53,827 nucleotides of DNA from Spirogloea muscicola (Eukaryota > Streptophyta > Zygnematophyceae > Spirogloeales > Spirogloeaceae). The stretch spans positions 462,597 through 516,423 of the forward strand of contig WELB01000011.1 in assembly GCA_009602725.1 (NCBI GenBank), written 5' to 3'. Positions 7,435 through 46,680 of the stretch are shown here, one piece after another (the first letter of the stretch is position 1; the number at the start of each line of letters is the position of its first letter). Position numbers and translations under genes: made by a program. Below the pieces are notes generated by a model, which worked only from the letters and a program-made list of their open reading frames with translations, searched no databases and was not told where the DNA came from.

Positions 7435-7869
7435 CGATTTTGACAACAGATCCTAGCTGTGCAGCAACGGCAGCCACGTCAGACCAGGCGACAACAGCAT
7501 CCAGGGAGCTTACCAGGATGAACCCGCTAGCTTACCACCACCCTTATTCATTGACTTAGTTTCATTGTCTGTACATTCATTTTTTCATTGATTTATCCTC
7601 GGGCTCCCTGCCATTCACTTGGAGATGAAAGAGCACATGAGTGTGCATAGGCTCATTCTAGCAAGTTGCACAACATTGCACTCGAGCTCACCATGATGTA
7701 CATAACAGTGAGACACAGCATGTGCTTAGCAATCACTAATTTTAGGCAAGCCTACCATATTTATGCAACCTGCAGTGCTGACATTATAATTGCTCATTTG
7801 CTCATTTCCTGCAGAGACAATCCCCTTTTCCTGCTTGCCAGACGTAGTAAATAAGTTACAAGAATGAGC

Positions 7870-9724
7870 TTATTTCAGCTTGCTGCAGAAGTCCGGCAGG
7901 TCAATGACATGAATTCTTGATATCTTGTTTGCCTCCTCTCTTTCTGAAGGCGTGTTGTAACCCCAAGTGCCTATGTGGAGATAAAAGTTGGTGTCAGTCC
8001 GATAGAGTGTGATGATAGAAATCATGCTCCGTGCCTCTCATACTCAACGATTTATGCAGAACAGCAATGCAGGAGGTGAGTATTGGCACAATCAAGTCAA
8101 GCAAGGAAGTGCATTACCCAAGTAGAGGTGCCACTTGTCGAGCTCGGGGCGCTTGATAACGTTCTTCAGCGTCGCCAGCCGGTCCTCCACAAAGCTGGGG
8201 AAAAGGGGAGAACAAGTGGGGCAACAAGGTCCACAAATGCTGCAACAAGGTTCACAGCTTGTAATCCTATACCAGTGAGAGGCTCAAAGAACTACATGAG
8301 ATAGCAGCTGTGGAAAGTGGCAAGCTGAGTATAATTGCTACATTGTTAGGCTTACTGCAAACTGCAGTCGGGATGAGCCGCCTGCAGCTTCTGCAGGACC
8401 TCCACCTTGGGCCTGCAGCGGAGATGGACCCCCCAGCAGCTCTTAGGGAGCGGCTAACAAGCACTATGCAACAGAGCGACAAGTACAATTAGCAGGCGCT
8501 CTGTGATTCGTCAGGAATGAGGTGCATTGCTCACTCAGCCTGGAGCTTGCATGCTTCCTCTCACCCGGAGCCGAGGCCATAGATGTTGTCCTCTGAGAAC
8601 GTGACGCCCGCTAGCTCCTTAAGGAGGGCCTGGGTGAACCGTGCCTGCCCAAGCACAGGTCCGCCAAACATTGCTCTGGAGTCCTCATCGGCGACTCTTC
8701 TGATGGTGATCAAAGTAAGCTCTGAGACAGATCGAAGCTACGTCTGCAGACGGAGATGCAGACGCATCCATGATCACGCACCGCTGCATTGGCAGCAGCA
8801 GAGATGACAGAGGCAGGGCTGCCAAGCCATAGTACCTGCTTCGTCGTCACTATGTACAAGGTGGACGATGCAAAGCGCAGGGCATCGGCCGTGCCTGGGT
8901 AGAATCTGCGAGTGCCGTGTCAAGGGCGGTCTGAACGGCGCCGGTCGGCGATGAGCCCACACGGCCCGACACGAATGCCGTCAACGTGGGATCAGGAGAA
9001 GGCAGCCGGCGAGGCGGCTGGCGCACCGGTTGGCGCCGATCCAGCCAGCGAGGTCGGTCTCCAGCCAGTGGTCGCGGTAGGACCCGAAGGCGTGGACGAG
9101 CGACTGAGTGTCGGTCTCACCCCACTCCTCCTGGACGCGCGGCTTGATCTGCGCCTCCCACTCCTTCAGGATGTCGTCCACCGACAGGCCCTCCGAGGCC
9201 TGTGCCGCCGCAGCAATGCTAGCTGCTGTGATGGTCGTCAAGCCATCAGTTCACGATAGGTAAGGTTTAGAATGGTCTGAGTTATGAAGAGTTATTGCGA
9301 TAAATGGGTCTTTAGATACTTAGTCACACTTGCAGTGGGGCTCCAAGGTGAGACACACGAGGCGCGCACCTTGCAGCGGCGGGGCGTGGCGGGGACGCGC
9401 ATCTCCAGCAGCAGGCGCACGAGGAGCAGGTTCTCGTACCCCGTCTCGACCACCGGCCGCACCGTGCGCATGGTGGCCAGGATCCAGTCCTCGTCGGCGG
9501 GCGTGGCGGCGTCCCAGAGGTCCGGCCACCGCAGCTTGGCGGCCTGCCACGGCCCGGATCGTCGTCTCAGCGCAGGACATGGAACGGCAGGGCGGCGGCA
9601 GGCGCGGCGGCGGCGGCGGCGGCGGCGGCGGGGCGGGAACCTTGAGGGCGGAGAGGGAGCTCTCGCCGGCGCTGTCGCAGAGGACGCCATCGAAGTCCAG
9701 CGCGTACAGAGCAAGCGCGGGCAT
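7870..9724 (-). CDS. HAD-superfamily hydrolase, plant type
   Basis: Haloacid dehalogenase-like phosphohydrolase, probably soluble; the substrate is not known to me. Eight exons: 9724-9641, 9543-9370, 9199-9027, 8905-8836, 8644-8565, 8412-8356, 8194-8118 and 7970-7870. They give 271 residues, about the length of the Arabidopsis homologue I recall (At2g45990). Motif I is LDFDGVLCD (Asp10, Asp12). The motif II region is IVTTKQ (Thr164-165). A conserved Lys occurs in GLGSGPKVEVL (Lys196), and the acidic motif IV is FVEDRLATLKNV (Glu216, Asp217). VRPVVETGYENLLLVRLLLE and WIGANRFYPG are diagnostic of this plant subfamily. Intron 1 is only 97 nt and full of CCG repeats. The gene is divergent from the membrane protein gene starting near 10383. 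Confidence 0.95.
9603..9632. repeat. CGG/GGC trinucleotide tract in HAD intron 1
   Basis: A GGC-type microsatellite on the plus strand inside the first intron of the HAD gene. It opens long but meaningless frames rich in Gly, Arg or Ala. Confidence 0.8.
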
Positions 9725-9726
9725 GG

Positions 9727-9781
9727 CCGCCGCGGCCGCGGCGGCGGCGGAGGCGGCGGCGGCGGCGGCGGCGGCGGCGGG
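9727..9781. repeat. GGC trinucleotide tract in the HAD 5' leader
   Basis: A second GGC-type tract immediately upstream of the HAD start codon at 9724. It is transcribed as CCG/GCC on the minus strand and probably lies in the 5' untranslated region. Confidence 0.8.
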
Positions 9782-10382
9782 ACAGGAGGACGGGGAGTGC
9801 CAGACCAGCCGGGGGGCCTTGCGGAGGCGGACGAGCTGGGGTCCCGTTCACATGCGGCTTGTCATTCCAACGAGTCACTTGCTGACCGGAGGTTGTTTAT
9901 GCCCTTAGCCAACTCATCACCACGTTACCAGGACATCTGTAAGGCTAAAATAAGCCTCCCTTTCAACTCCATGCGCACCGCGCGCCTTCCTCTCCATTGA
10001 GCGCCCACTCGCTAGACTCAGGCTCAGGCTGCTGTCTGTCTGCCTCAAAAGTCTCGACGGAGCAACTTACACTTTCTGTTTAGCTGCCTGCGTTGCAATA
10101 TCTGGCCCTTTTGGGCCATCCTATTGGCATTTTGGGCCACTCGAGTCGCTGTGCGCTATAGCACTTTTCTGGCCCCTTCGGACTATGTTACATACTTTTT
10201 CTGGGCTGGTCACTCATAGCCATCGCGCTCTTTGTCCGGCTGCTCTTACTGAGCAGCCAAATCATAGAGCTCCATGTGACTGACTACTCTCCCTTCTTGT
10301 GTAACTTGCTACCAAGCCTCCTTCATAAGTGCTCTTTGCATTCAGCAGTGGACTACCTCGTCAATGTGACGAGAACTCAANG
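9782..10382. other. Divergent intergenic region with repeat fragments and an ambiguous base
   Basis: Separates the HAD gene from the divergent membrane protein gene. It holds an arm-like fragment (CATGCGCACCGCGCGCCTTC near 9970) and a weak copy of the hairpin repeat near 10195-10220. A single N lies at 10381, within the expected first exon of the next gene, so sequence may be missing there. Confidence 0.5.
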
Positions 10383-22221: not shown

Positions 22222-25200
22222 TCAACGCAGGGTACGAGTCCTTTGTGAGCGTAAGGCAGTTCGCTTTCGCCAGATACGCCAAGCCTGCTTTGTCCCCTTG
22301 TAGAACAAGTAGGCCGCAAGTATGACCACCATGCCAGAGGAAAAGATCATGAAGTGGTATATCTCTTCGTCATGACCTCCTTCTTTGAGGCCACTCATAT
22401 CCAGATTGTCCCGTGTGAGCAACCGCATCATCAAGCTGGGCTTTTGTAGGGTGGCACAATCTGCACCTTGGAAGAACTTATCGCAGATGCATTTGTTGGT
22501 GAGCCCGTTACAGACTCCGTGGCCACTGCACCAGTCACAGCAGTAGGACACGGGCAGCCACTCTTAACGCTCTGCGCAGGCATGTGATATCCGCAAGACG
22601 CCATAAAAGGAGCAGGGCTTAGAAGCAATGAAAGAAATGCCTAATTGTATTATCCTCTAATGCAAGTGCTCGCAGCCAGCTTGAGTTGTAAGGAAGGAAC
22701 CTCGACCTGCAGCCGTGGGGGCAGAGATAAGGTACAAGGAACAGTCTGCTCGTTGGAGGAGAGCTTGGACGAGTCTGCATAGGCACTATCCAAAACTGGC
22801 CGCCTGGGGCAAGGCCCATGACCTCTGGTTGGCCTTTGACAGATGCCTGGCATGGTGGAAGCGAAAAATGGCCAACGGTGGTGGCTAATACCTTGTAGCT
22901 GTATGTGTATGTGCCTGCCTTGAGAAAGCCACTAGACACTCGAACTGCAGACATAGTCTTCTGCTGCTCGTCATACCATGGCTCAGTGAATCCCCTGCAT
23001 AAGCTTGACGTATGAGCTTGAGCTTGCTTATAGCATACCCCGTTGATTGAGTGCTCAGAAGCTCGTGAATGTAGGTACCTATCGGATCGCTGTATGAAGT
23101 GAAGACATCCATCTGGCACGCTGGAAAGAAAATGCTCTACAAAATCTGTTAAGAGCGACTTCCACATCTGCTGCGGATTTAAGTAGGACATGTGTGCACT
23201 TACTTAGCATAGGAACCAGAAAGGAGGTCTGGTGCGTCAGAGGCACCATAATAGGAAAGAGGTTCACAACCTCCAGGCAGCTTATCGACCAGCTGCAGAC
23301 CTTCGATATCATCGAGGGTAGTCATTTGAAGAGTGACTTGTAGAACTGAGCCAACCTCCACCTGCAGTCATGAACAATTTGGTGGTCGATGCATTGCTAT
23401 CAGGGCGGATACCTGAGGAGAAGCAGCGCATCTTGGGTGTCTGACAACTTGAGCCGCCTCAAAGAAGCCGCCTTAAGCATGACTACAATAACAACAAGGA
23501 TGAAATGTTTTCAGAGCATCTTGGAGAGTTGCTGCTACTTCACCCACCCAGGTAAGATCCTCCAAATTGTTTTCACCTGTTGAGATATCTATCTTTTGAA
23601 TTACCCGTCTTACATCCAGCCCACGGAAAAGAGGGAAGGTAATGAGTTTCAACGGCACATAGCTAACTGTGGTTGTGACATATACCTGCACGCACAGTAG
23701 GCATGAATGATGCTGACTCTGCAGGGGCTTAAAAGGTGGCATGACGACGTCAGCTTGAAGACGTCATTAGTAATAAGGAAGCGGCACAACGACTTCATAC
23801 CTCTCCCTTGCCATGGGCCTGATATTTTATGCTTGGCCTGGCTGAGCCAACCTCCTGAAAGGAGAAAGATCTGTGTACCAGAGATGAGCTCCCTCCAAGC
23901 CTGAAGGAGGCCGTCAACAACTTCTTCTTCCCAACAGCAGCCTCAAGCTGAAGATCAGTGCTCACACTGCCCTTCCATCGATCGTACTGTGCAAGTGCTA
24001 TAATGGGCAAGGCAGCCTCCCTAGGGCTGACGCTGTAGATTCCCAGGTTTTGGCCTCCCAAGGAGCTATATGCAGAGAGGTAATTCGCAATTTTCTCTTC
24101 TATGACTCCCGTGCCATTGAGCTGCAGCAAAAGAGTGTTCGTTAGCTGGCTCTCACCTTGAGCAGTCATTCTGAGCCAGGATCAAACTCTTCCATAGGAA
24201 TCAAAGTAAGATTGAATTCCAACAAAAATGCACAGGACTTCTTGAGTAAGCAATCACTGAATTCACAACATCACAGACGCTGCTCAGAGACCCTGATCAC
24301 AGAGAGCAGCACTAAGCAGCTACGCAAGGATGCTTCGAACTTGGTGGCTTCAGTGCATGACTTCAACATGCACGGAGCTCGAAGCACAAATGACAACTTT
24401 GCCTTGGTGAAAAGTAGTAGCGCCATGGCATTAGCAGATCTGGAAGCAGGCTGGTTGGACCCCTCGGTGATGTACGCAGTGCTGCCTTGGATTCTCACAG
24501 CAGCTCGCAATGATGTGATGATATTTGCTAGCTCTGAAGCCCAAAATGACGAGTAGAAGTCGTCCAAGGAAGCTGACAAAGTAAGACCAAGTGCTGCTTT
24601 GTGAAAGTTTGAGAGCTGGGACACATGCTGTAGAAGACGGCTCATGCCAAGATCTCTACGGAGGCTTCTGTCTCTGCGCCTCTTGGACACCCAGGATGTG
24701 CCAAGGGCGAGACGCGCCTCCGCTAGGAGCGGTATCCGCATGGTACCTTGACCTTTGTAACAGGTTTCTAAACTCTTGACGAGACCCTTGTGCCACGTCC
24801 GTTGCAGGTACTCATTGAGCGACGGGCTCAGCAAGGGGCAGTTCAGATGTTCCAACAGCCTCAGCAAGAAGAGGGCAACAGCTTGAAAGCCCAAATCACA
24901 AGGACTGGAGCTCCAGCAGAGCGACCCTGGACAGAGGGAGCCATTTGCAGCACTTAAAGCAAGTAACATGCTTGCCAGAAAGGGTTGTGACCATTCCAGC
25001 CAAGTTGCTGCAACTCTTGGATCGCAGGACGATACTCATCACAACCAAGTTCTGGCTGTTACAACAAGAAGGCTTGTAAGTATGTACCACTTGCAACCAA
25101 GTCACTGAGGTTGCTGGATGTTTCTTCAGGTACATCAAGCTGAAGCAGAGAACTTCCTTGCAGGTACTCCGATGTTGACAGTGAAGCTGCCAGCTTAGCA

Positions 25201-28200
25201 ATGAGCCACTCATGGGAGATGCAATTTTGAACAGGGGCGTGTAAATCCAACATCTGGGCGATTGCGTCTATGGCTGGCTGCCTCCCAATCCTGAAGGAAA
25301 AGAGGTTGTCAGCTCAACATGATTATGCTGCTGTAATGCATTCTCATCGAAATATGGAGTACACCAAAGCATACACCTAATTGAACTCCTCATTTGCGTC
25401 TCAAGTCAGGTGGTATTTGGATCATTTGAAGACTACCCTGCTCGGATAATCATCCTTCCACTGTCTGGAAGAGCTGGTGGGATCTCCAAATCTTCTTGCC
25501 GTTCCTTGCCGGCTGACATTACAAAGCTGGAAAAGAGCATGACATTCTCATGCAAAGCTTCCACCTGCACTATTGTTTCGACTTGATCCTCGACCTCGTG
25601 CCCCACAACAGCCTTGAAGTGTAAAACAGCGACACCAACAGCACGTGCGGAGAGATGGAACACGGCCTGCATGAGGAAGCCAATGGTTGTCATTGTAGAG
25701 GACTGAAGTGATGAGTAGCTAGCTAGCTCTGCAGGCATGGGCTTCTCAACACAACTGTTGAAGCCTTGCTCTGAGTTTCATATTCACATGAAACAGTCTC
25801 TACGTGTCAACTACATTGCATGTGATAAGATGGTGAGGAGATACAAAAAGCATTTGTGCTTTCCGAGCAACTTTGAATGGGGTTGTGCACCTGTAAAGCA
25901 CTGCAACTAATTACCTCTCCTGTTGCTGGCCCCAGGATGTACTTAAATATAGTAGTATCACCCACAGTGCTTACCCCGCTCGTTGTCAACACTATTGTGA
26001 CGTTAACACCCTTCTGTGGTGTATGATTGTCCAATCTAACATTCACTCCTGCCTCAAATACGTCTCCAAGCCTGACCAGTTTGGGGGCAGAAGCTCGAAG
26101 TGCGATTGATCTTCTCACTACCATCTGTGCCTCTGCAGAAGCAAACCTGTGGTCTTCGGTAGCTGCATAGGCATGAATAGCTATCGAACGCACATTGGCA
26201 GGTAGCTGGAAGGTGACAGCCACCTGCAATTAAAGAGTGAGCTATATATAGGTTATTGATTGCCAGATCGTTGATTTGTTTGTGCCTTCCAGAGCAATTG
26301 CTAGACCACATGTGAGCAGCAAATTGACTAACGCTGGAATATTGGTCATGCCTTGCTTACCTTGCCAAGCTTGTCAGAAACGACCTGGGTTGCAAATAGT
26401 ATCGTGGAATTGAAGTGTGTTCTCCTTCTGAAGAGGACATCATCATTCTCGTCCTGAATGAGTGTGATGCCATCGTTGAAATGATACATCTTCTCATCTG
26501 CCCACTTGGCAGAATTTCCACGGTTGAAAATTGCATCAGCTACACCAAAAGCATCGCGGCTCCTCGTCAAGTCAGCTGCTCATATTGAAACAAGGCAAGG
26601 TTGAGCTTTTGGTGACAGGTGTCTACAACTCTGTCCTTCAAGCCATACCCGTCATGTGCTGAAAGTCAAAGCTATGGTGGCAGCCACTTACATTAGCCCA
26701 GGCATGCCAATCCAGCGCAGATTCGGCGATTTTAGAATTCAGTTTAGACCAAACCTGTCTCACCAGAAAGGCTGGAAGTAAATTGCATCAAGGCCTCGTT
26801 TACATCCATGTCAATGACTCTCTTGTGGCAGAAATCAGCTCTGAAGGGCTCCAACAGATTGTTTCCGCGGCAGAGGTCTTGAACACTGTGAAAGACAAGT
26901 CCAAGTCTCAAGTGAAGTTAGTATCAATTGCTCCTTCCTGTAAGCCTTCTTTCATTGAGCACAGCTAGGTCCCCAGCATCAGCAGGTTTCGATGGTTACT
27001 TCAGAGTAGACACAAATCATCTGCAATCTCACGCAGTAGTAGGCCCTATTTGACGAGGTAACAAGCTGTGCACATACACAAGCCCAGGTTCAAGATTCTT
27101 CAGCTGCTCAAATTTCTTGACGACAGTCTGGAGGTACTTAGGCGCCAGCAGGTGTTCCTGTGTTGACACCACTAGCGCTTCATACATTCTGCCATTGCTG
27201 ACACTTGCTGTGTCAAGTCTTTCCTGAAGTGGTGATTGTGCCGTTCCTAAAGTGGCTTTGTCCACAGCGACGACCGTCAGTTCAACATCAGATTCTGGTA
27301 GGCCACGGCAAGATATGCCAATGTCCACTGTCACTTCAGTGTCCGGCAGAAGTTCTCCTTCAGGAACAGACTGCGCATGCTTGCACAAAAAAGCTACCGG
27401 CTGATTATCTGAGATATTTCTGCAGTTTGGAACAAGGACTTGTTCACCGGAGAGAAGATATCATGCTTCTCATTTTGTATCAAACCATGCCTGTGCAATA
27501 TGACCAGAGTCACAGGGACTAACCAAGTCGACATCCAACGCTCCATCTATCTGCCGGATGGGTAGTATCAAGAACATGCTGTGGGTGGTGGGAGCATTGA
27601 TGTCAAATGTTGCACTTGAAGGGATAGTTGCTAATCTGTTGGATAATAGTGTGGATTTTTGTCGAGGAACTGCTACAAGCTACCACACACAGGAGCAAGC
27701 ACAGCTTAGCAGAGATCATGTCATCTTCAAGCCAGAGGTCAGGCAAGCCCGTTTATGCAACTTAGCAACCGATAGAAGACTGCCAGAACTTACAATCTGC
27801 AGTGCACAGCCTTCTCTGCACTCATCTCCAATTGTGATAGAAATCGAGGTTCTTGGGAATCCATGCAGCTGGAAGGTCTTCATCTGTTGTCCATGCGTTG
27901 GTCCCCACATTGCCAGGGCCCAAGCATTTATGTATGGTGTATCGAAGGAGACCACCGCTGTGTCTCCCATACTGTATTCCTCTTTGTCCAGTGTGCTTAT
28001 GAAACGGCCATGCCTGGACAAAGGGCAGTCTTTCCATTGCTGCAATAGAAAGGATGTGTGACTGTAAGTGCTGCAGCTAGTAAGCCAGATCATATCCTTT
28101 TATGTCAATGTCAAGGTGTAATAGTATCTATGCAAGACTACCCACCCACTCGTTACCATGTATTCACCTGCTTGGAAGACCCTAGTTGAAGGGCACTGCA

Positions 28201-31200
28201 TATCTCCACGCCAGATGCATCATTGAGGCAACCTCTCAGAAGATACTGGGCCATCTTGCGCATCTGGAAGCTGCACAGGGAACCTGCATGATGATGACCA
28301 GATTCCTGTAGCCTGCTAAGTGGATCCAGAGTCGTCGCATTGGTGAGGCAAGTAGAGACTTCCTTCAGTTGCGACATGCCATTCTTGCCTGTCCGGTTGA
28401 CCAGCAATGTCATTGTAACCACTGGTGAGTATGCATCTTCAACCAAAAGGGATCGATTCGTCAACGCTCTTTCCAAAAGCACTTGAACACCTGCACGGAA
28501 GGTAGTGAGTGAGCAATGCTGGTGAGTGTGGCATCCTTGGTGTCATTCCCGCAACATACATGCATTGAAAGTCCAGACGCTCTGCGTATTCATGTGATTC
28601 CATATCATGGATTGCACCTTCTGCCTCCCTCTAAGTCATGAGCAGCGGATATAGCTTGTGTTCTCACCAAAGTGTTGCCCAGGCAAAGGGAAACTCTGTG
28701 TGAGCAGTAGTGTGAGACTGAGCTTGCTCTTGGCTATGGGTATGTACAGGTTCCTGACAACCATCTCCCCGCTAGGGCCCACAACTGTTGCTGTCAGCCA
28801 AAGAGATTGTTGTGTGAGCTCTTGGCTAGCTATGTGCAGCCTGAAGACGGCCAAGCCCTCTGCCGTGGAAGCCATGGAGGCTGAGCCAGAGTTGGTTGAG
28901 GTCTTGTTGTCACTTTCCTTAGCAGCACAATCCCCTTCCATGAAAGTGATCAAAGGCCTGTCCTCCATTGCAGTGTCTTGTTGGGAGCTAGGAGCTATTG
29001 TCACTTCCCAATCAACTTGGATCATTGCACCCGCCACAGGTGCACCTGTGTAGGTCCTTATCTTTGCAGTAAAATTCAGACACTCTCCAGGTATTGCCAC
29101 TACTTGATCCGCAACGAGGTCAAGCATCACAACAGGTGCTTGCTCTCCAAGTACATGGAAAACAGTTGAGGTCAGTCTCACCAATAAATGGTCATCAAGA
29201 ATGCTTGAGTCTTGCCCTGCCTGCAGCTCTGCTGTTGCTCCTGTCGTGTTGCCCATGCGCTGCTCATATGCTGCAGTACGCCAGTTAAGCCTGTCATCTT
29301 CCTGAGAATCACTACCCCTCATCTCTTCTTCAACATCTTCACGTGAATATTGTGGCTCTTGCCACGTTGCAGGCTGCATGGAGGGCTCCATGGCCGTTGC
29401 CTCGGGTGTCCTAACAAGCTCCATAACGTATGAGCCAGGCGTGGTGCCAGCTGGTATGTGGAACTCCTCCGAGAAGCTTCCATAAACTGGATCAAGTACA
29501 ACTGGATGCCATTTGAAGGTGGTTGATGGCCTCACTCCAACATAGAAATTGGCCGTCAAGGATGAAAGCTGCAGCTGAGGATCACAACACAGACACGTAA
29601 AAGCTCACTTGCAAAATCGCTCAGTCAAGTCGACTCCGCCGCATAGTACAATTTGATAGGGTGCCTAGCCACAAATCTCATGGACGCTGACTTACACCTC
29701 TATCCTGCAATTGCGGATGCAAGATGCCATTAGACTACTGCAGACAAAATCAATTGATGTACAGGGCCTGCTCATGCGTAATCAGAGGGTATTGCAATCG
29801 CACCTCAGAATGCTTCACTTGGTGCACATACCCTTTCACCATTAAGCTCTCATTCGCATAGTACATAAGTCGATCCAGTATCAGAACGGCTGTATGACGG
29901 TCTGTTTCGCCATGCTGGTCAAGACACTGGTATGGCATTGGTAGGTGGATTGATAGGGTGATGGCCTTCATATCATGCAGAATGTAAGCACAATAACTCG
30001 ACTCGGAGCACTCCGGTAGCTTGAAGGTTGCCAGCCCCTCCTCATCTGTGCTCCTTCTGGACATGTTCTGTCCTCTGTTGTACTCCCACGAATTGTGCTG
30101 CAACTGTGATGAACCCATGAAACCATCACTATGCTTTATGTAGGTAGGTTGCATGTTAGAATGACAAGCTTAGGAATAAGCACTACCTGCTCATCTGCAC
30201 TCCTTGGCGCATGTCTGTATGATCAAGAGAGCAGTTGACTATTTGCTGGTCATTTGGGCTCACACAATGTGGAATCAATGATTGACGGCATCCTCTAGGT
30301 ATGCATAGTCGTGGCTATAGCCTATTCTCAAGTTGGGTCATACATGCTACAGCATAGTGACATGGTAATTACGTGGCAGAGCAGACAGCATTAAGGGTAA
30401 AGAGGCACCGAGGCTTGGATGTGTAAGGCAGCTATTGACCTTTATTAAGTGGACTTGCGCTCCCCTAATGGGGCTCCCTGTCTTGAGATCAACCACCCAA
30501 AAGTGAACGTCCCGGTCATCGAAGAAGTATGAAGCCCCAAGGCCTGTCTCCCCTATTGTGTGAAGTCTGTTATCTACTACATTCTCCTCCACTATGTCCT
30601 GCTCTAGCATTTGCAGTGTGAAAAGCCTGCACTTGGCAACTGTGAGAACAGTCATGACATGCTTTATCCATCCTCCTTATGATGCATCTGTAATGTGGAG
30701 AGCCTGCCCAAGTATGGTGTGACTTGATTCAGTTAAATGCCCTGTAGTTACTGCTCAGATGATTTTGGGGCCTGTGCTTTGTAGTCCCTTCGAAGTCCTG
30801 CATTGGTGACATCTTGCAGCACGGGTGTTGTGAAATAGTTTCTATGAAGTTGCACAATGGTAGCAGCAGTAGTTGGAGGAAGAGAAGGCACCCTGAAGTC
30901 CTGAGGAGCCTACTAGCATTGACAGGTGCAATCTGCATTGCCTCCTCAGACATAAGGTCAACCTGCCAAAAGACAAACAGCCACTGTAAGACATTTCCAG
31001 AGGCATTCTGTAAAGAAAGGCGCAGATTCATATAAAACGTGACCTTATGTTGAATGCTTGAGGGTGTATTACCCCTGAAAGAAAAGCAAAATTAAGATGC
31101 TTAACAAGAAGAGGCTCACAGACAGGTCAGGAGGATGTCTTGAGGCTCCCATCGTGTGCCACTCATGGAGGCCAGGATCTAGGCTCCACTTCCTTAGTGT

Positions 31201-34200
31201 GCTTATGTTACTCTCAATATTCCAAGCTCTCACAGACAGCAAGCTGAGATATGTGTCAGATGGTAGCTGCTCCTTGATGCTGCTGCAAAATCTTCAGTCC
31301 AAGAAGTGCTCTAAAGGTTTCTGCATAGACTCTGTGAAGGCAGAGTAGCAGCAACAGCGCAGCTCCTAGTGGCATGAAGAGACCTTGTTGCACGAAACTC
31401 TTCAGGCCTTTGGGTGCAGATGGGCCAAGTACCATCCCAACCTGTTCCCTCCTCCAATAAAGCTCCATGTTCTGCCACTGCAAATGTACATCACGTCAGG
31501 ACTCTTTGGGTTCTGACAGCAGCCTGCCAACATCTGATGACACTATACTGGCTTGTGTAAGGAGGGGCAATCTGGTGCTCTGACAGCAGAACAAAGATGA
31601 CTTGTCATACCGTAACCGCCCCAGGAGAACTGCGGATTGTTTCCAGCATCTTTGAAGAGCAGAGATGCATTGCCCATGTTGAAGATGATACTTGAACTCT
31701 CCAGAGGTTGCCCGTATCCATCTGTCACAAGGCTCGTGTTTCGGACGAAGAGTTTCTGTCATGCAGATCAAAGATCAGCTAGTATGCAATAGCAGTAGTA
31801 TGATGAGTTTGATTAAGATGCAACATTGATCAATGACACTGGTGTGGCAGACACACTGGTGTGACATACGCTCAATGGTGATGACGCCTTAGACAGGAGT
31901 AATGGACAAAGACAAGCTCTTGGGATCAATCAGACAATTCATGCTCACATATTTGCGCCCGCATTCCAATGGAGTGTAAATACAGAGGGAGCCTGCTGAT
32001 AAGCGTGACACATTGATAGGCAGTGGCATGCCATGAGTCCCCTTTCCTGTCACCTCTTGCACAACAAAAGCTTCCCTCAATGCCCTCCTTGTCACAGCTG
32101 TCCCTAGTCCATGTGGGAGGTTGAGCACAAGGCGACGATAGCTGATGCACTCACAATAGCAAAATCAGAAAATCAGCAAATCAACCCCGATGCTGACTAC
32201 CATGTCAGCGAACGTTCCCCTAACTGATGACATGCCGTGCCACACTCAGTATAAGATGCAAGTTGACATAGAAATTGCAACAGTTTGAGGTAACCCTTAC
32301 AAGACTGTGTTGTAATAGCTCAGACGTCGTCGCATCTTCCTTGAAAACGAGTAACGGCCGCTGATATCTCTGAGCTGCCTTGTCTCCTTTGAAAGTGGGA
32401 TAAAGAATCTGCAGAGTCCTGTGATCTTGACAGTGAAGGGGGTGCTCATTGGTCCTCCGAGTGGGTGAAGCCTTGCACCCTCTGCAAAGGTCAGATTGTA
32501 CTCTGACCCCCACTGTAATGCACCTTCTACAGAGCTTGATGTCAGCTACACAATCACAACCAATTGTTCATATTGATGGGGCCTATGGTCCTGAGAGGAC
32601 CACCCATAACGGTTTTCTCTCTGCATCATGCTGTATGGCTTCCATGGCGAAGCTAGCCAATCTGGCGGATCTTGCCACTTTGTGATGTTGATCACAAATT
32701 GATTCGTAGCAGCCCCAGAAGTGGGCAATATCTGGCAAGAACGCAGTGGTAACATTGCTGCAAATCAGAGATAGGTGGGGTCCTTCCAGAGCAACTATTG
32801 TTATGTGGGTTACCAGACCTGCACCACCTAGCAGCTCCGATTATGTCATTGGAGGTGGAAGCTAGACGCCACACTTCTTGGCTGAGGGCGGAACCCATAC
32901 CCTTAAGGCCTCTTGCACCCGTCCAATGTTGACAGCGCTTGAGAATGTGAGGACAATTCTGCACCAAAGCAGCCATTCGCTTAATTATAAAGACAGGGGA
33001 ACACTGGAGAACAGCCAGACCAATTGCAACCTCTTGAGTATGGGAGATGGACACAGACTTGATCCTTGTGAACTCAAGGGATGTTGCCGTAAGAGGGCTG
33101 CGCTTGCAGTGAAGAGGCAGGATGATACGATACCTTCCATCAGGGGGTACTTCATGAGTGCCTGACAGTTCCTCATGACGGCCGTTGTAGCAATGCTGGC
33201 TTGACCACATGCCACCCTGCAAAAGTAGCATGTTACAGCATGTTGCACACAATCGAGTTGCAGCTTGGTGCACGGAGGTTGAGGCCATATGTCATGCATA
33301 TTACACGTATGTATGTCATACAAATCAGTATGTCACCCAAATTAAATCTTCATGCTTTACGTACTGTGAAGTTGGTAGCACTGGTGGATAGAACGGTGGC
33401 CACACTGATTTTCAAGGGCCTTGTGTGAAGTATCAGCTTGTGGTCCCACAACCCGACAGTATCCAGCCTGCAGTCACATGTTGCCTGACCATTCAGTTGC
33501 TATCACACATAAGCTGGATCAGGTGAGTCATGCCTAAGTATTCAAAATTTTCAGCAACGTGAATCCGAGGCCTGAGCAGTTCAATCACTCAGAACCGTCG
33601 AAAGAGGTGTAGTTACGACAAAGATTCAGTGCGACGGTCAAATCAGGAGGCCAGGTTTCATCAGGGTCAAATCTGTATACTGAGGTAGAGACCCTGCATC
33701 AAGCGGGTGAAGTGTTTCTGAGGAGTGGACAAAGAGATGACATTCAGTCACGCAAGGTTGAAAAAGTGGCCTCAATGGTACATGGGAATCTGACAATCTG
33801 AAGCTTCTAGGTCAGCAGCAACATACGTGCACCACACGAAGACATATGTGGACCCAGCACTGATGCTGCAAGTTGGGAGGGATGTGGCTGACCAGTGGAA
33901 TTTGCCAGCAATTGGCTCAGAAAGATGAAAAGGTTGTTGACCTCCGCTACTGCTATGGTCGGCACCCAGTGCTAGGGCAGCCTTTGTGAAGGTCATCTGC
34001 ACTCATTGCGACTGAGTTGGCTGCAGGTATTCGAAACGGAGCGGTTACTACGCATCTGTTTGCTGCAAACAGATGCCCTGATGCAAATCTGTCAGCTCAA
34101 CCATTGAGCTGAGAGTACTGGAGAACTCCTGCTTGACATGAGAATATGGCCATCTCATCATAAGAGCCTCAGCAAGATACACCACCCTTCCAGGATAGAT

Positions 34201-34299
34201 TGTGTGAAACACGTGCAATGACTCACGGTAATCGGTGTCAACCCATCCAGTTTAGGTCGTGACATGTCGTTCGTTGGTGTTGGCTCAATTGACAGTATC
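22222..34299 (-). CDS. Alpha-2-macroglobulin family protein, bacterial (YfhM-like) architecture with EGF-like and transmembrane C-terminus
   Basis: A large protein, roughly 1,800 residues, related to protease-trapping A2Ms. Resolved minus-strand exons include 34299-34227, 33996-33827, 33672-33589, 33467-33365, 33216-33134, 32958-32868, 32408-32301, 31755-31611, 31477-31331, 31226-31120, 30626-30440, 30097-29804, 29574-28668, 28490-28168, 28039-27794, 26885-26764, 26575-26361, 26223-25915, 25666-25437 and 25290-25088. Signature blocks in order: an N-terminal FTKAALALG...PFHL domain; macroglobulin repeats (IVLTFSSAVN, VTDGYGQPL, FWVVDLKTGSPIRGAQVHL, LMYYANESLMVKGYV, YGSFSEEFHIPAGTTPGSY, YTGAPVAGAMIQVDWEV, LDKEEYSMGDTAVVSF); THFNSTILFATQVVSDKLGK and VAVTFQLP; a helical thioester-like domain (25290 to about 24270); DLTWVGEV and LPPCQASVKGQPEVMG. 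The last exon holds an EGF-like module (CSGHGVCNG...GADC) and one transmembrane helix. Exons near 32700, 32100, 30800, 27600, 27300 and 24900-22600 have uncertain edges. The start and signal peptide are unresolved. Confidence 0.85.
34052..34076. repeat. Perfect 11-bp hairpin in an A2M-like intron
   Basis: GCATCTGTTTG and CAAACAGATGC pair exactly around CTG, inside the intron 33997-34226. Confidence 0.85.
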
Positions 34300-45625: not shown

Positions 45626-46081
45626 ATAGGTGGTAACAGTAGCCTTTTTCTGATCTAATCCCTCCTTGCGCATATCAAGATTTTCGAAGTGTAGGCATTT
45701 CGTATGAGTGTTGGCCCTTGTTTACGTTTTCCTGGCCGAAGTAAGACGGTTTTGTTGAGCGCTTCAATATAAATCTGAGCAGAAAAAGGTTTCCCATAGC
45801 TCACCTCAATCACGCCACAGAACTATGAATCATGAAAGTGTTGAATATTGTAATATGTTGAATCGGCGGGTCGGGGTGGATGACCATCCCGACCGTCTCA
45901 TTGGGCCCTTAGAGTCTCCCTTGGATAAGGGAGGCCTCGGGCACCGGTCGGAAAACTCTGAACATCTGAGGCCACGCGGTCACGCGCCCGTGCGCCCTAG
46001 CCCTGGCTGCCACCCACCTTGGGTGAGGGCGGAGCCTGTGCCGTCTGACTGTCTGTCTGAGATCTGAATCTGTTTGCCGCC

Positions 46082-46680
46082 ATGAGCACATCTGCATCTG
46101 AGCCGCTGCGACGAGGTCGCTCTGCTGGGCCGCCGTCTCAACGAGGGCGATCTGCTGGACCTGGAGGACGTCCAATGGAGGAACATGACTGGAGGAATCC
46201 AGACTCTGACAACGCTGTGTACAACCCACAGGGACAGGTACAGGAGCAAGCACATGAGCACACAGCCCAGGAACTTTTTCAGAAAGATCATGCAGGCAAC
46301 GAGCTCAACCTTAATAGTCAAATCGACATCAATAAGCCACCGGCAGAGTATAGCACTGACAGTCCCTTGGGCTTTAGTCTCACTCTGTACACATGCAGCA
46401 TGCTGACAGCCCCATACTTTTAGGCTCACTGAGATCCAGCTTCTGTGAGCTTGATGTGGCTACGTACGTTAAGTGCATAGATGGTGCTTCCTGCCACATA
46501 GCGCGTGGCCAGAAGCTGGGCCACGTTGTGCGTGCGTACTGGCACGTGAGTGTGCCAACATACTCACGTGCTGTAAAAGTATTCCATGTGTACACTCCTG
46601 CTGCCACATTGACAATGTCTGCTGCTCTTCTCCCTAGCCGACGATGTTCTGATCAGCGAAAGACTGTGGCCACATTTTAG
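46082..46680 (+). CDS. Unrecognised small gene candidate
   Basis: The ATG at 46082 has a good context (TTGCCGCC before it). It opens an exon to about 46219 encoding a repeated RGRSAGP motif (RRGRSAGPPSQRGRSAGPGG) and MEEHDWRNPDSDNAVYNPQG before a GT donor. A second likely exon, about 46431-46548, reads SSFCELDVATYVKCIDGASC and then ARGQKLGHVVRAYWH, ending exactly at GTGAGT. The last exon may begin after CTCCCTAG near 46649. How these join is not resolved and I recognise no family. It converges on SEC10, whose stop is at 46906. Confidence 0.35.
46542..46571. promoter_or_regulatory. Inverted pair of G-boxes
   Basis: GCACGTGAGT at 46542-46551 and ACTCACGTGC at 46562-46571 are exact reverse complements with a 10-nt spacer. 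The left one overlaps the putative GTGAGT splice donor of the candidate gene. Confidence 0.3.

What the first reader, a model, noticed from the sequence alone, without database searches (positions are those of the whole stretch)
22222..34299. Alpha-2-macroglobulin-like gene of bacterial architecture in a green-lineage nuclear genome
Seen: one minus-strand series of at least 25 spliced exons encodes, in order, a YfhM-like N-terminal domain, a string of macroglobulin repeats, a helical thioester-like domain and the final PP..A....PEV.G block. Established: A2Ms are well known in animals and bacteria, and the bacterial type has just these extra N-terminal domains. Inference: a bacterial-type A2M was acquired and then became intron-rich, which would imply an old transfer or deep ancestry. 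I do not know of a characterised plant or algal member. A surface-anchored protease trap would be a plausible immune role.
Basis: partly seen in the sequence, partly recalled or inferred. Interest (0 to 1): 0.88.

Follow-up and report, generated by a model that had tools for sequence, protein, structure and literature searches.

The report
Bacterial-type protease-trap gene in an alga
A plant-lineage alga carries an intron-rich gene for a giant, apparently membrane-anchored protein built like the protease traps of bacteria, lacking their usual chemical hook, with a bait stretch that changes fast between gene copies, which would be a kind of protease defence not expected in plants.

Summary
The gene is real. 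Of 1,186 open frames in the window, the six that match a bacterial A2M profile at E up to 1 all lie on the minus strand at 22622-30676, in the profile's order. Eighteen core exons (30639-22222) splice in phase into 1,728 residues; seven more (33693-31433) are tentative. Joined exons match Pfam bMG10 (6.4e-16), A2M (7.9e-8) and EGF_2 over cut-off, and bMG3, MG2 and A2M_BRD below it, in bacterial order. The genome has four copies in a triplicated region. Distinct core indels keep frame in 9 of 10 exon and 6 of 62 intron cases; dN/dS is 0.42-0.64. The thioester motif CxEQ is lost in 4 of 4 copies. The bait segment is the most variable stretch, the thioester-type domain the most constrained. An EGF module, a membrane helix and a basic tail end the protein. 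Best reading: a surface-anchored, thioester-free, bait-triggered protease trap or sensor; a new variant of a known kind. Bacterial transfer is plausible but unresolved (tree support 62/63). No RNA or function was tested.

The parts
31433..33693 (-). Tentative 5' exons 1-7 (33693-33589, 33467-33361, 33161-33059, 32958-32875, 32534-32301, 32141-31936, 31477-31433); start codon and signal peptide not settled
   Evidence: Phase-compatible, no stop in the window copy; 0 indels in 884 exon nt against 60 (counted pair by pair) in the 2,170 nt of introns. Doubtful: exon 2's donor (GT in the window, GC in the other three), exon 5's AAG acceptor, weak donors of exons 3, 6 and 7. Copy c26 has a stop in exon 2. 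No similarity to bacterial N-terminal domains.
30440..30639 (-). Core exon 8: bMG3-type strands (VHFWVVDLKTGSPIRGAQVHLIK)
   Evidence: The single frame matches the bacterial profile at 4.9e-4; Pfam bMG3 0.0038 (window) and 1.8e-5 (c18b), both below cut-off.
29804..30097 (-). Core exon 9: end of bMG3-like part, start of MG2-type domain
   Evidence: In-phase exon; Pfam MG2 2.2e-6 in c18b, below cut-off.
28668..29568 (-). Core exon 10: MG2-type end, long acidic insert, next macroglobulin domain
   Evidence: The single frame matches the bacterial profile at 1.3e-7; hhalign shows an insert at the acidic stretch.
28168..28490 (-). Core exon 11: macroglobulin domain
   Evidence: Inside the collinear segment, profile 477-894.
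27794..28039 (-). Core exon 12: start of A2M_BRD-type domain (DKEEYSMGDTAVVSFDTPYINAWAL)
   Evidence: Single frame 0.0059 with the bacterial profile; Pfam A2M_BRD 2.2e-4, 22.0 bits against cut-off 22.7.
27524..27679 (-). Core exon 13: A2M_BRD-type domain, middle
   Evidence: splice sites in 4 of 4 copies.
27078..27370 (-). Core exon 14: A2M_BRD-type end and start of the bait-side linker
   Evidence: Donor 27078 replaced 27033, whose GT is missing in two of four copies.
26755..26885 (-). Core exon 15: linker before the bait segment
   Evidence: In-phase; copy c18a has a nonsense codon here.
26361..26575 (-). Core exon 16: bait segment (26555-26430, placed by its position before the A2M domain) and start of the A2M domain
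   Evidence: Holds the most variable 30-codon window of the core: 20 of 30 positions, and gaps from an 11-codon deletion in c18b (33-nt indel).
25975..26223 (-). Core exon 17: A2M domain PF00207
   Evidence: Pfam A2M 7.9e-8, over cut-off; single frame 8.6e-12 with the bacterial profile; genome hit C11:488625-488822.
25437..25666 (-). Core exon 18: strands between the A2M domain and TED
   Evidence: Aligned with Gemmatirosa; weak donor GTAGTC; copy c18a has a nonsense codon near its end.
25088..25290 (-). Core exon 19: start of the TED-type domain; lost thioester site CISHEW at about 25223-25206
   Evidence: No CxEQ in 4 of 4 copies;'s consensus the Cys is kept and TEQ deleted. pN/pS 0.20.
24388..24926 (-). 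Core exon 20: helical TED-type domain (its 3' end may lie up to 24275)
   Evidence: pN/pS 0.24; two 30-codon windows with no amino-acid change among the copies; donor ambiguity.
23801..24121 (-). Core exon 21: end of the TED-type domain and following strands
   Evidence: Partly inside the tblastn match to Gemmatirosa and aligned.
23548..23685 (-). Core exon 22: strands before bMG10
   Evidence: Donor GTGGGT in the window, GTGAGT in the three other copies.
23204..23361 (-). Core exon 23: bMG10, first half
   Evidence: Pfam bMG10 6.4e-16, profile 1-131 of 131; single frame 0.0016 with the bacterial profile.
22707..22994 (-). Core exon 24: bMG10, second half, and first cysteines of the EGF module
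   Evidence: Single-frame Pfam bMG10 1.1e-6; bacterial profile 7.8e-5. Donor GTCGAG is unusual and was chosen because it completes the EGF pattern.
22222..22525 (-). Core exon 25: EGF module, membrane helix (about 22362-22306), basic tail, stop
   Evidence: Pfam EGF_2 1.1e-4, over cut-off, in one frame and joined; hydropathy 1.51-1.92 over 19 residues, the top window in 4 of 4 copies; 10 K/R and 0 D/E in the last 29 residues of the window copy.

Best explanation
This is a single-pass membrane protein of a streptophyte green alga whose ectodomain is a bacterial-type alpha-2-macroglobulin. SHOWN by sequence: the collinear bacterial A2M core (bMG3-, MG2-, A2M_BRD-, A2M-, TED-type and bMG10 parts), absence of the CxEQ thioester, an EGF module plus hydrophobic helix and basic tail, selection that keeps frame and protein, a hypervariable bait segment and a strongly constrained TED-type domain. 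INFERRED: the ectodomain faces outward. A protease that cuts the bait segment triggers an A2M-type collapse, so that the protease is caged or the cut is reported at the membrane without a covalent thioester bond, as reported for the thioester-less bacterial A2M MagD (PMC5764988, abstract read). Changing bait sequences would tune which foreign proteases are met, and the constrained TED would act as a structural switch or binding surface rather than as a chemical hook. Origin by transfer from bacteria, followed by intron gain and by fusion to EGF and a membrane anchor, is the likelier history but is not shown.
For: Model-free: six of 1,186 frames match the bacterial profile at E up to 1, all on the minus strand and in order. 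Pfam on joined exons; bacterial profile on the joined core 1.7e-54 with four collinear segments, 0 of 120 shuffled or reversed sequences; hhalign 99.9%, E 1.8e-31, 1,282 columns. Nearest hit Gemmatirosa A2M, 29% over 234 residues. Distinct indels: 9 of 10 core-exon against 6 of 62 core-intron cases are multiples of three. dN/dS 0.42-0.64 in 6 of 6 pairs, dS close to intron divergence. Bait segment most variable, TED most constrained. CxEQ absent in 4 of 4 copies. Helix and tail. Green-lineage genome.
Against: No RNA, protein or activity data. The 5' end is unsolved: no start codon or signal peptide is established, so secretion and outward orientation are inferred. Exons 1-7 match nothing in Pfam or NCBIfam; the core matches no NCBIfam model either. 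The single sequence hits no solved A2M at E up to 1 and a profile of two algal copies hits none at E up to 10. Structure models were useless (pLDDT 39 and 38). One copy of four has two nonsense codons in core exons, and dN/dS near 0.5 also fits partly relaxed constraint. Loss of the thioester may mean loss of trapping. Frames, splice sites and indel penalties used A2M likeness and conservation, so the joined-model statistics are partly circular; one search's frame search is not.
Confidence: 0.6

Rival explanations
1. A2M-derived adhesion or cell-wall/matrix receptor: the macroglobulin scaffold, EGF module and membrane anchor serve cell-surface binding, and protease trapping has been lost together with the thioester.
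For: Thioester lost in 4 of 4 copies; EGF module, whose only PDB match at E up to 1 is in Reelin (4e-4); membrane helix.
Against: The bait position is the most variable stretch and the TED-type domain the most constrained, which fits a bait-and-switch better than a passive adhesin; MagD is reported to trap without a thioester (PMC5764988, abstract).
Confidence: 0.25
2. A decaying gene family: relics of an old transfer, drifting after genome triplication.
For: One copy with two nonsense codons in core exons; dN/dS up to 0.64.
Against: Two copies (window, c18b) have intact cores; 9 of 10 distinct core-exon indels keep frame; pN/pS 0.20-0.24 in the first two TED exons.
Confidence: 0.1
3. An old eukaryotic or animal-type A2M inherited or transferred within eukaryotes, not bacterial-type.
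For: A2Ms of supposed animal origin are reported in three green algae (Micromonas, Pycnococcus, Bathycoccus; PMC9156758, passages read).
Against: bMG10 and bMG3 are the matching models and no animal-specific model was listed; the bacterial profile matches the core at 1.7e-54. The algal sequences of that paper, and animal A2Ms, were not compared here.
Confidence: 0.08
4. Contamination or assembly artefact: a bacterial gene in an algal assembly.
For: Bacterial-type sequence.
Against: 17 core introns with GT-AG ends in 4 of 4 copies; colinear neighbours on three contigs; GRAS genes on the same contigs C11 and C18.
Confidence: 0.01

Closest known systems
Type I bacterial A2M (YfhM of E. coli, SaA2M; here the Gemmatirosa kalamazoonensis A2M, L012:1979-7765, next to a PBP1C-like ORF)
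   Same: Domain order bMG3, MG2, A2M_BRD, A2M, TED, bMG10; hhalign of the four copies to an 11-sequence bacterial profile, 99.9% over 1,282 columns.
   Different: Spliced gene; no CxEQ thioester; no detected counterpart of the Big_5-type N-terminal domains of Gemmatirosa; C-terminal EGF, membrane helix and tail; no match to the PBP1C C-terminal family in the genome.
Type II bacterial A2M (MagD of P. aeruginosa, YfaS of E. coli)
   Same: No thioester; MagD is reported to trap a protease without one (PMC5764988, abstract).
   Different: YfaS reading-frame pieces give no match to the algal copies at E up to 10, so the thioester was probably lost independently (inference). The operon partners have no meaning for a spliced eukaryotic gene. 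MagD itself was not compared.
Animal A2M/TEP/CD109 and complement
   Same: General macroglobulin plan with bait, A2M and TED-type regions; CD109 is also surface-anchored (recalled).
   Different: bMG10 at the C-terminal end; no animal-specific Pfam model listed; EGF plus membrane helix.
A2M genes of green algae Micromonas, Pycnococcus and Bathycoccus (PMC9156758, passages read)
   Same: A2M family in green algae.
CAGE complex (PMC12485934, abstract and passages read)
   Same: Very large protein in green algae and Gram-negatives, discussed as a possible protease trap.
   Different: Those authors found no Pfam domains in it; this protein has A2M-family domains. The sequences were not compared.

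Membership tests
Bacterial-type alpha-2-macroglobulin | bMG10 C-terminal domain | tested here: met
   1.1e-6 in a single frame; 6.4e-16, profile 1-131, joined; 5.2e-17 in c18b.
Bacterial-type alpha-2-macroglobulin | A2M domain PF00207 | tested here: met
   4.3e-7 in a single frame; 7.9e-8, 32.5 bits against cut-off 21, joined.
Bacterial-type alpha-2-macroglobulin | bMG3 and MG2 domains ahead of the bait-region domain | tested here: inconclusive
   Right place and order but below Pfam's cut-offs: bMG3 17.6 of 34.9 bits, MG2 18.8 of 32.8; 25.0 and 28.4 in c18b.
Bacterial-type alpha-2-macroglobulin | Bait-region domain A2M_BRD | tested here: inconclusive
   2.2e-4, 22.0 bits against 22.7; 19.8 bits in c18b.
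Bacterial-type alpha-2-macroglobulin | bMG5 and bMG6 domains | tested here: not met
   Not among the families listed for the window or c18b; both are listed for the two bacterial controls, though bMG6 in Gemmatirosa and bMG5 in Fusobacterium fall below cut-off there too.
Bacterial-type alpha-2-macroglobulin | Full-length collinearity with bacterial A2Ms | tested here: met
   Six single frames in order; four collinear segments, 1.7e-54; hhalign 1,282 columns, 99.9%. The TED stretch, profile 1057-1396, is not covered by the window's HMMER segments.
Bacterial-type alpha-2-macroglobulin | N-terminal bMG1/bMG2 or Big_5-like domains | tested here: not met
   Exons 1-7 score -1.8 bits with the bacterial N-terminal profile, below the best of 500 shuffles; the exons themselves are tentative.
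Type I (thioester) A2M | CxEQ thioester motif in TED | tested here: not met
   Absent in 4 of 4 copies; present in 8 of 11 bacterial A2Ms compared.
Type I (thioester) A2M | Neighbouring or co-occurring PBP1C | tested here: not met
   PBP1C C-terminal family PF06832: 0 matches in the genome; a miss there is not proof of absence.
Type II (thioester-less) A2M | Sequence kinship with YfaS/MagD | tested here: not met
   No match to two YfaS pieces at E up to 10; MagD was not compared.
A2M protease inhibitors (function) | Conformational trapping of a protease after bait cleavage | not testable with these tools
   Needs protein.
Animal-type A2M/TEP/complement | A2M receptor-binding or complement-specific domains | tested here: not met
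   None among the 10 families listed at E up to 10 (HMMER filters drop most weak matches).
CAGE complex | Protein without known Pfam domains | tested here: not met
   A2M-family Pfam domains present; description of CAGE from PMC12485934.

The most novel reading that the evidence does not exclude
The streptophyte line holds its own A2M-based surface defence, separate from that of animals: a bacterial A2M taken into the nucleus, stripped of its thioester, fused to an EGF module and a membrane anchor, multiplied by genome triplication and now diversifying its bait between copies while keeping the TED-type switch fixed, so that each copy senses or traps a different set of microbial proteases.
Probability: 0.3. 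Interest if true: 0.85.

Novelty: new variant of a known kind. Interest (0 to 1): 0.62.

Why it matters
A2Ms are known as animal immune proteins and as bacterial protease traps. A 2022 study that searched green plants with an animal query found no support for them in land plants and accepted three green-algal sequences (PMC9156758, passages read). A bacterial-type member in a streptophyte alga with a membrane anchor would give relatives of the land plants a class of protease defence not described for them, and four copies with different baits make the bait-diversity idea directly testable. I found no report of it. These cover open-licence PubMed Central only; accepted papers holding only some of their terms and showed only their top 5 to 15, so the full test is (2, 0, 1 and 10 papers, all listed).

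Tried and rejected
Gene-model programs of my own with several penalties skipped or misread the fast-changing exons; an anchored version (anchors being window peptides that I picked by eye) and hand correction against four copies gave the model used. Splice choices 27033, 30387, 30074 and 22701 were dropped for 27078, 30440, 30097 and 22707. The 3' end of exon 20 stays open between 24388 and 24275, and a small exon between 25975 and 25666 may be missing. The first indel count (15 of 16 and 8 of 87) counted shared events once per copy; one search recounts distinct events (9 of 10 and 6 of 62).

The search for related loci on genome contigs found nothing with a bMG10 query or with an algal/Gemmatirosa alignment, the peptide patterns being poor. 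So bacteria were sampled from plasmid records only, and the tree of 15 rows (11 bacterial, 4 algal) cannot place the origin. Plasmid searches with the A2M-TED part gave only matches of E 1 or more; with the C-terminal part, Gemmatirosa (4e-9) and a BatD protein at 0.1. AlphaFold without an alignment gave pLDDT 39 and 38, not interpreted. PDB: only a Reelin EGF matched the window protein; two algal copies together matched nothing; the profile that reached YfhM at 2e-29 held two bacterial sequences and so proves little. NCBIfam: nothing. CAGE was considered and rejected on its description.

The name Spirogloea muscicola for this genome is recalled from its published triplication and was not tested; one search lists 8 of the 11 papers that hold both terms, none opened.
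Full report
WHAT WAS CLAIMED.

THE GENOME. The window is G000:C11:462597-516423 of a 153-Mb genome in 471 contigs. Chlorophyll a/b-binding proteins (68 matches) and GRAS proteins (92 matches, exon by exon) mark it as photosynthetic and, by the recalled spread of GRAS, as a streptophyte; GRAS matches lie also on C11 and C18, contigs that carry A2M copies. The surrounding DNA is colinear on C11, C18 and C26, in pieces mostly 82-92% identical, the pattern of a genome triplication. From memory this fits the zygnematophyte Spirogloea muscicola; that name was not tested.

FOUR COPIES. PF00207 has four matches in the genome: C11 (window), C18 twice, C26. A TED-domain query returns the same four loci and no other (12 exon matches). 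I call the others c18a, c18b and c26. Over 13.5 kb they are 88-92% identical to one another.

A MODEL-FREE CHECK. All 1,186 stop-to-stop frames of at least 30 residues on both strands of the window were searched with a profile of 11 bacterial A2Ms. Six matched at E up to 1: frames ending at 30350, 28639, 27719, 25810, 23203 and 22622, with E 4.9e-4, 1.3e-7, 0.0059, 8.6e-12, 0.0016 and 7.8e-5. All are on the minus strand and follow the order of the profile (281-321, 477-617, 753-780, 974-1056, 1500-1537, 1555-1620). Pfam on single frames had already given bMG10 1.1e-6, A2M 4.3e-7 and EGF_2 1.1e-4.

GENE MODEL. Using the four copies together, 25 exons were chained in phase without a stop in the window copy; exons 8, 9 and 14 were then changed, giving a core of exons 8-25 with 5,189 nt and 1,728 residues. 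Exons 1-7 are tentative. Core acceptors are AG in 72 of 72 cases and donors GT in 68 of 68; the background for intronic GT/AG pairs kept in all four copies is 244 of 381. Since I picked sites with conservation in view, this is partly circular. Distinct indels are multiples of three in 9 of 10 core-exon and 6 of 62 core-intron cases, p = 5e-7; my exon scoring had penalised frame-breaking indels, so this too is not fully independent. The window and c18b copies have intact cores. c18a has two nonsense codons, in exons 15 and 18. c26 has one single-base indel in the last exon and a stop in tentative exon 2.

WHAT IT ENCODES. Pfam on the joined window protein gives, in order, bMG3 (0.0038), MG2 (0.0021), A2M_BRD (2.2e-4), A2M (7.9e-8), bMG10 (6.4e-16) and EGF_2 (1.1e-4); only A2M, bMG10 and EGF_2 pass Pfam's cut-off (on the model). 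c18b gives the same order, with better scores except for A2M_BRD. bMG5 and bMG6, listed for two bacterial controls, are not listed for the alga. The bacterial profile hits the four joined cores at 3.2e-51 to 3.5e-56 in collinear pieces, and 0 of 120 shuffled or reversed sequences. hhalign of the two alignments gives 99.9% probability over 1,282 columns from core residue 26 to 1607. Against that, the two algal copies alone match no solved A2M, and the tentative N-terminal exons match nothing.

NEAREST RELATIVE. Among 72,556 plasmid records the core protein matches one at E up to 0.1: a Gemmatirosa kalamazoonensis A2M, 29% over 234 residues, 7e-8. A Gemmatirosa query finds A2M-like matches in 280 plasmid records at E up to 1e-10, so the single hit is not for want of A2Ms. 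The gene is followed by an ORF that I read by eye as PBP1C; pbpC is annotated beside the A2M in three other loci fetched (Sinorhizobium, Treponema, Fusobacterium). The tree of 15 sequences joins the alga to Gemmatirosa with support 62/63 and a branch of 2.62: no origin can be claimed. The PBP1C C-terminal family was not found in the algal genome.

THE THIOESTER IS GONE. In 8 of 11 bacterial A2Ms the TED has C-x-E-Q; Azospirillum, D. radiodurans and Anaerotruncus lack it. The four algal copies read N/D-CISHEW. In one alignment the Cys is kept and TEQ deleted (consensus); in others the register differs; none gives the Gln. YfaS, a thioester-less E. coli protein, is not close.

SELECTION. dN/dS is 0.42-0.64 over 6 of 6 pairs, with dS (0.10-0.18) close to intron divergence (0.10-0.16). 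By exon, pN/pS runs from 0.20 and 0.24 in the first two TED exons to 0.86 in the bait exon. The most variable 30-codon window of the core lies in the bait segment (20 of 30 positions); a 42-codon segment there is equalled or passed by 7 of 1,687 windows, which may overlap one another and include itself; the coldest windows (0 of 30) lie in the TED-type domain. The bait exon also holds the longest core-exon indel, 33 nt, in c18b. c18a, the copy with nonsense codons, is in these counts.

MEMBRANE END. After bMG10 come an EGF module (CPHGCSGHGVCNGLTNKCICDKFFQGADC; its splice was chosen to complete the EGF pattern), a hydrophobic stretch that is the top hydropathy window in 4 of 4 copies (1.51-1.92 over 19 residues), and in the window copy a tail with 10 Lys/Arg and no acidic residue. 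A signal peptide was not established.

HOW IT MOST LIKELY WORKS. Shown: scaffold, bait variability, constrained TED, missing thioester, membrane end. Inferred: bait cleavage by a foreign protease collapses the ring around it, or reports the cut, at the cell surface and without a covalent bond. The precedent is MagD, a thioester-less bacterial A2M reported to trap a protease (PMC5764988, abstract read). A pure adhesion receptor is the main rival.

KNOWN OR NEW. The family is known; this form, with bacterial-type core, lost thioester, EGF and membrane anchor in a streptophyte, was not found in my literature searches (limits under Why it matters). A 2022 study searched green plants with an animal query, accepted three green-algal A2Ms as authentic and probably of animal origin, and found no support in land plants (PMC9156758, passages read). 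The CAGE protein of algae and bacteria is described as without Pfam domains and so is a different thing.

Noticed in passing
window 45837-46282 (query 7838-8283 of window:38000-47000): A repeat of about 445 bases with many copies, up to 100% identical, on other contigs, set inside DNA that is otherwise mostly shared by C11, C18 and C26: looks like a recently active short mobile element.
   Followed up: no
C18:398000-415400 and C18:419000-434900 (L005, L006, L008, L009, L011): Two A2M copies about 20 kb apart on one of the three colinear contigs; the second (c18b) is closer to the window copy (92.2%) than to its neighbour c18a (89.0%), so it is not a simple recent tandem duplicate.
   Followed up: partly
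window 24388-24275: About 100 bases after the chosen end of exon 20 are open in frame in the window and look unusually conserved for an intron (a 12-base deletion in c26 keeps frame); the exon may be longer or alternatively spliced.
   Followed up: partly
L012:1979-7765 and 7519-10125: On the unannotated Gemmatirosa plasmid record the A2M gene and the next, PBP1C-like ORF overlap as listed from first possible start codons; the true start may be later.
   Followed up: no
window 28668-29568 (exon 10): A long acidic, Ser/Thr-rich insert (about residues 235-300 of the core), missing from the bacterial profile in the hhalign alignment, sits between two macroglobulin parts; the exon changes fast between copies (pN/pS 0.80).
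   Followed up: no
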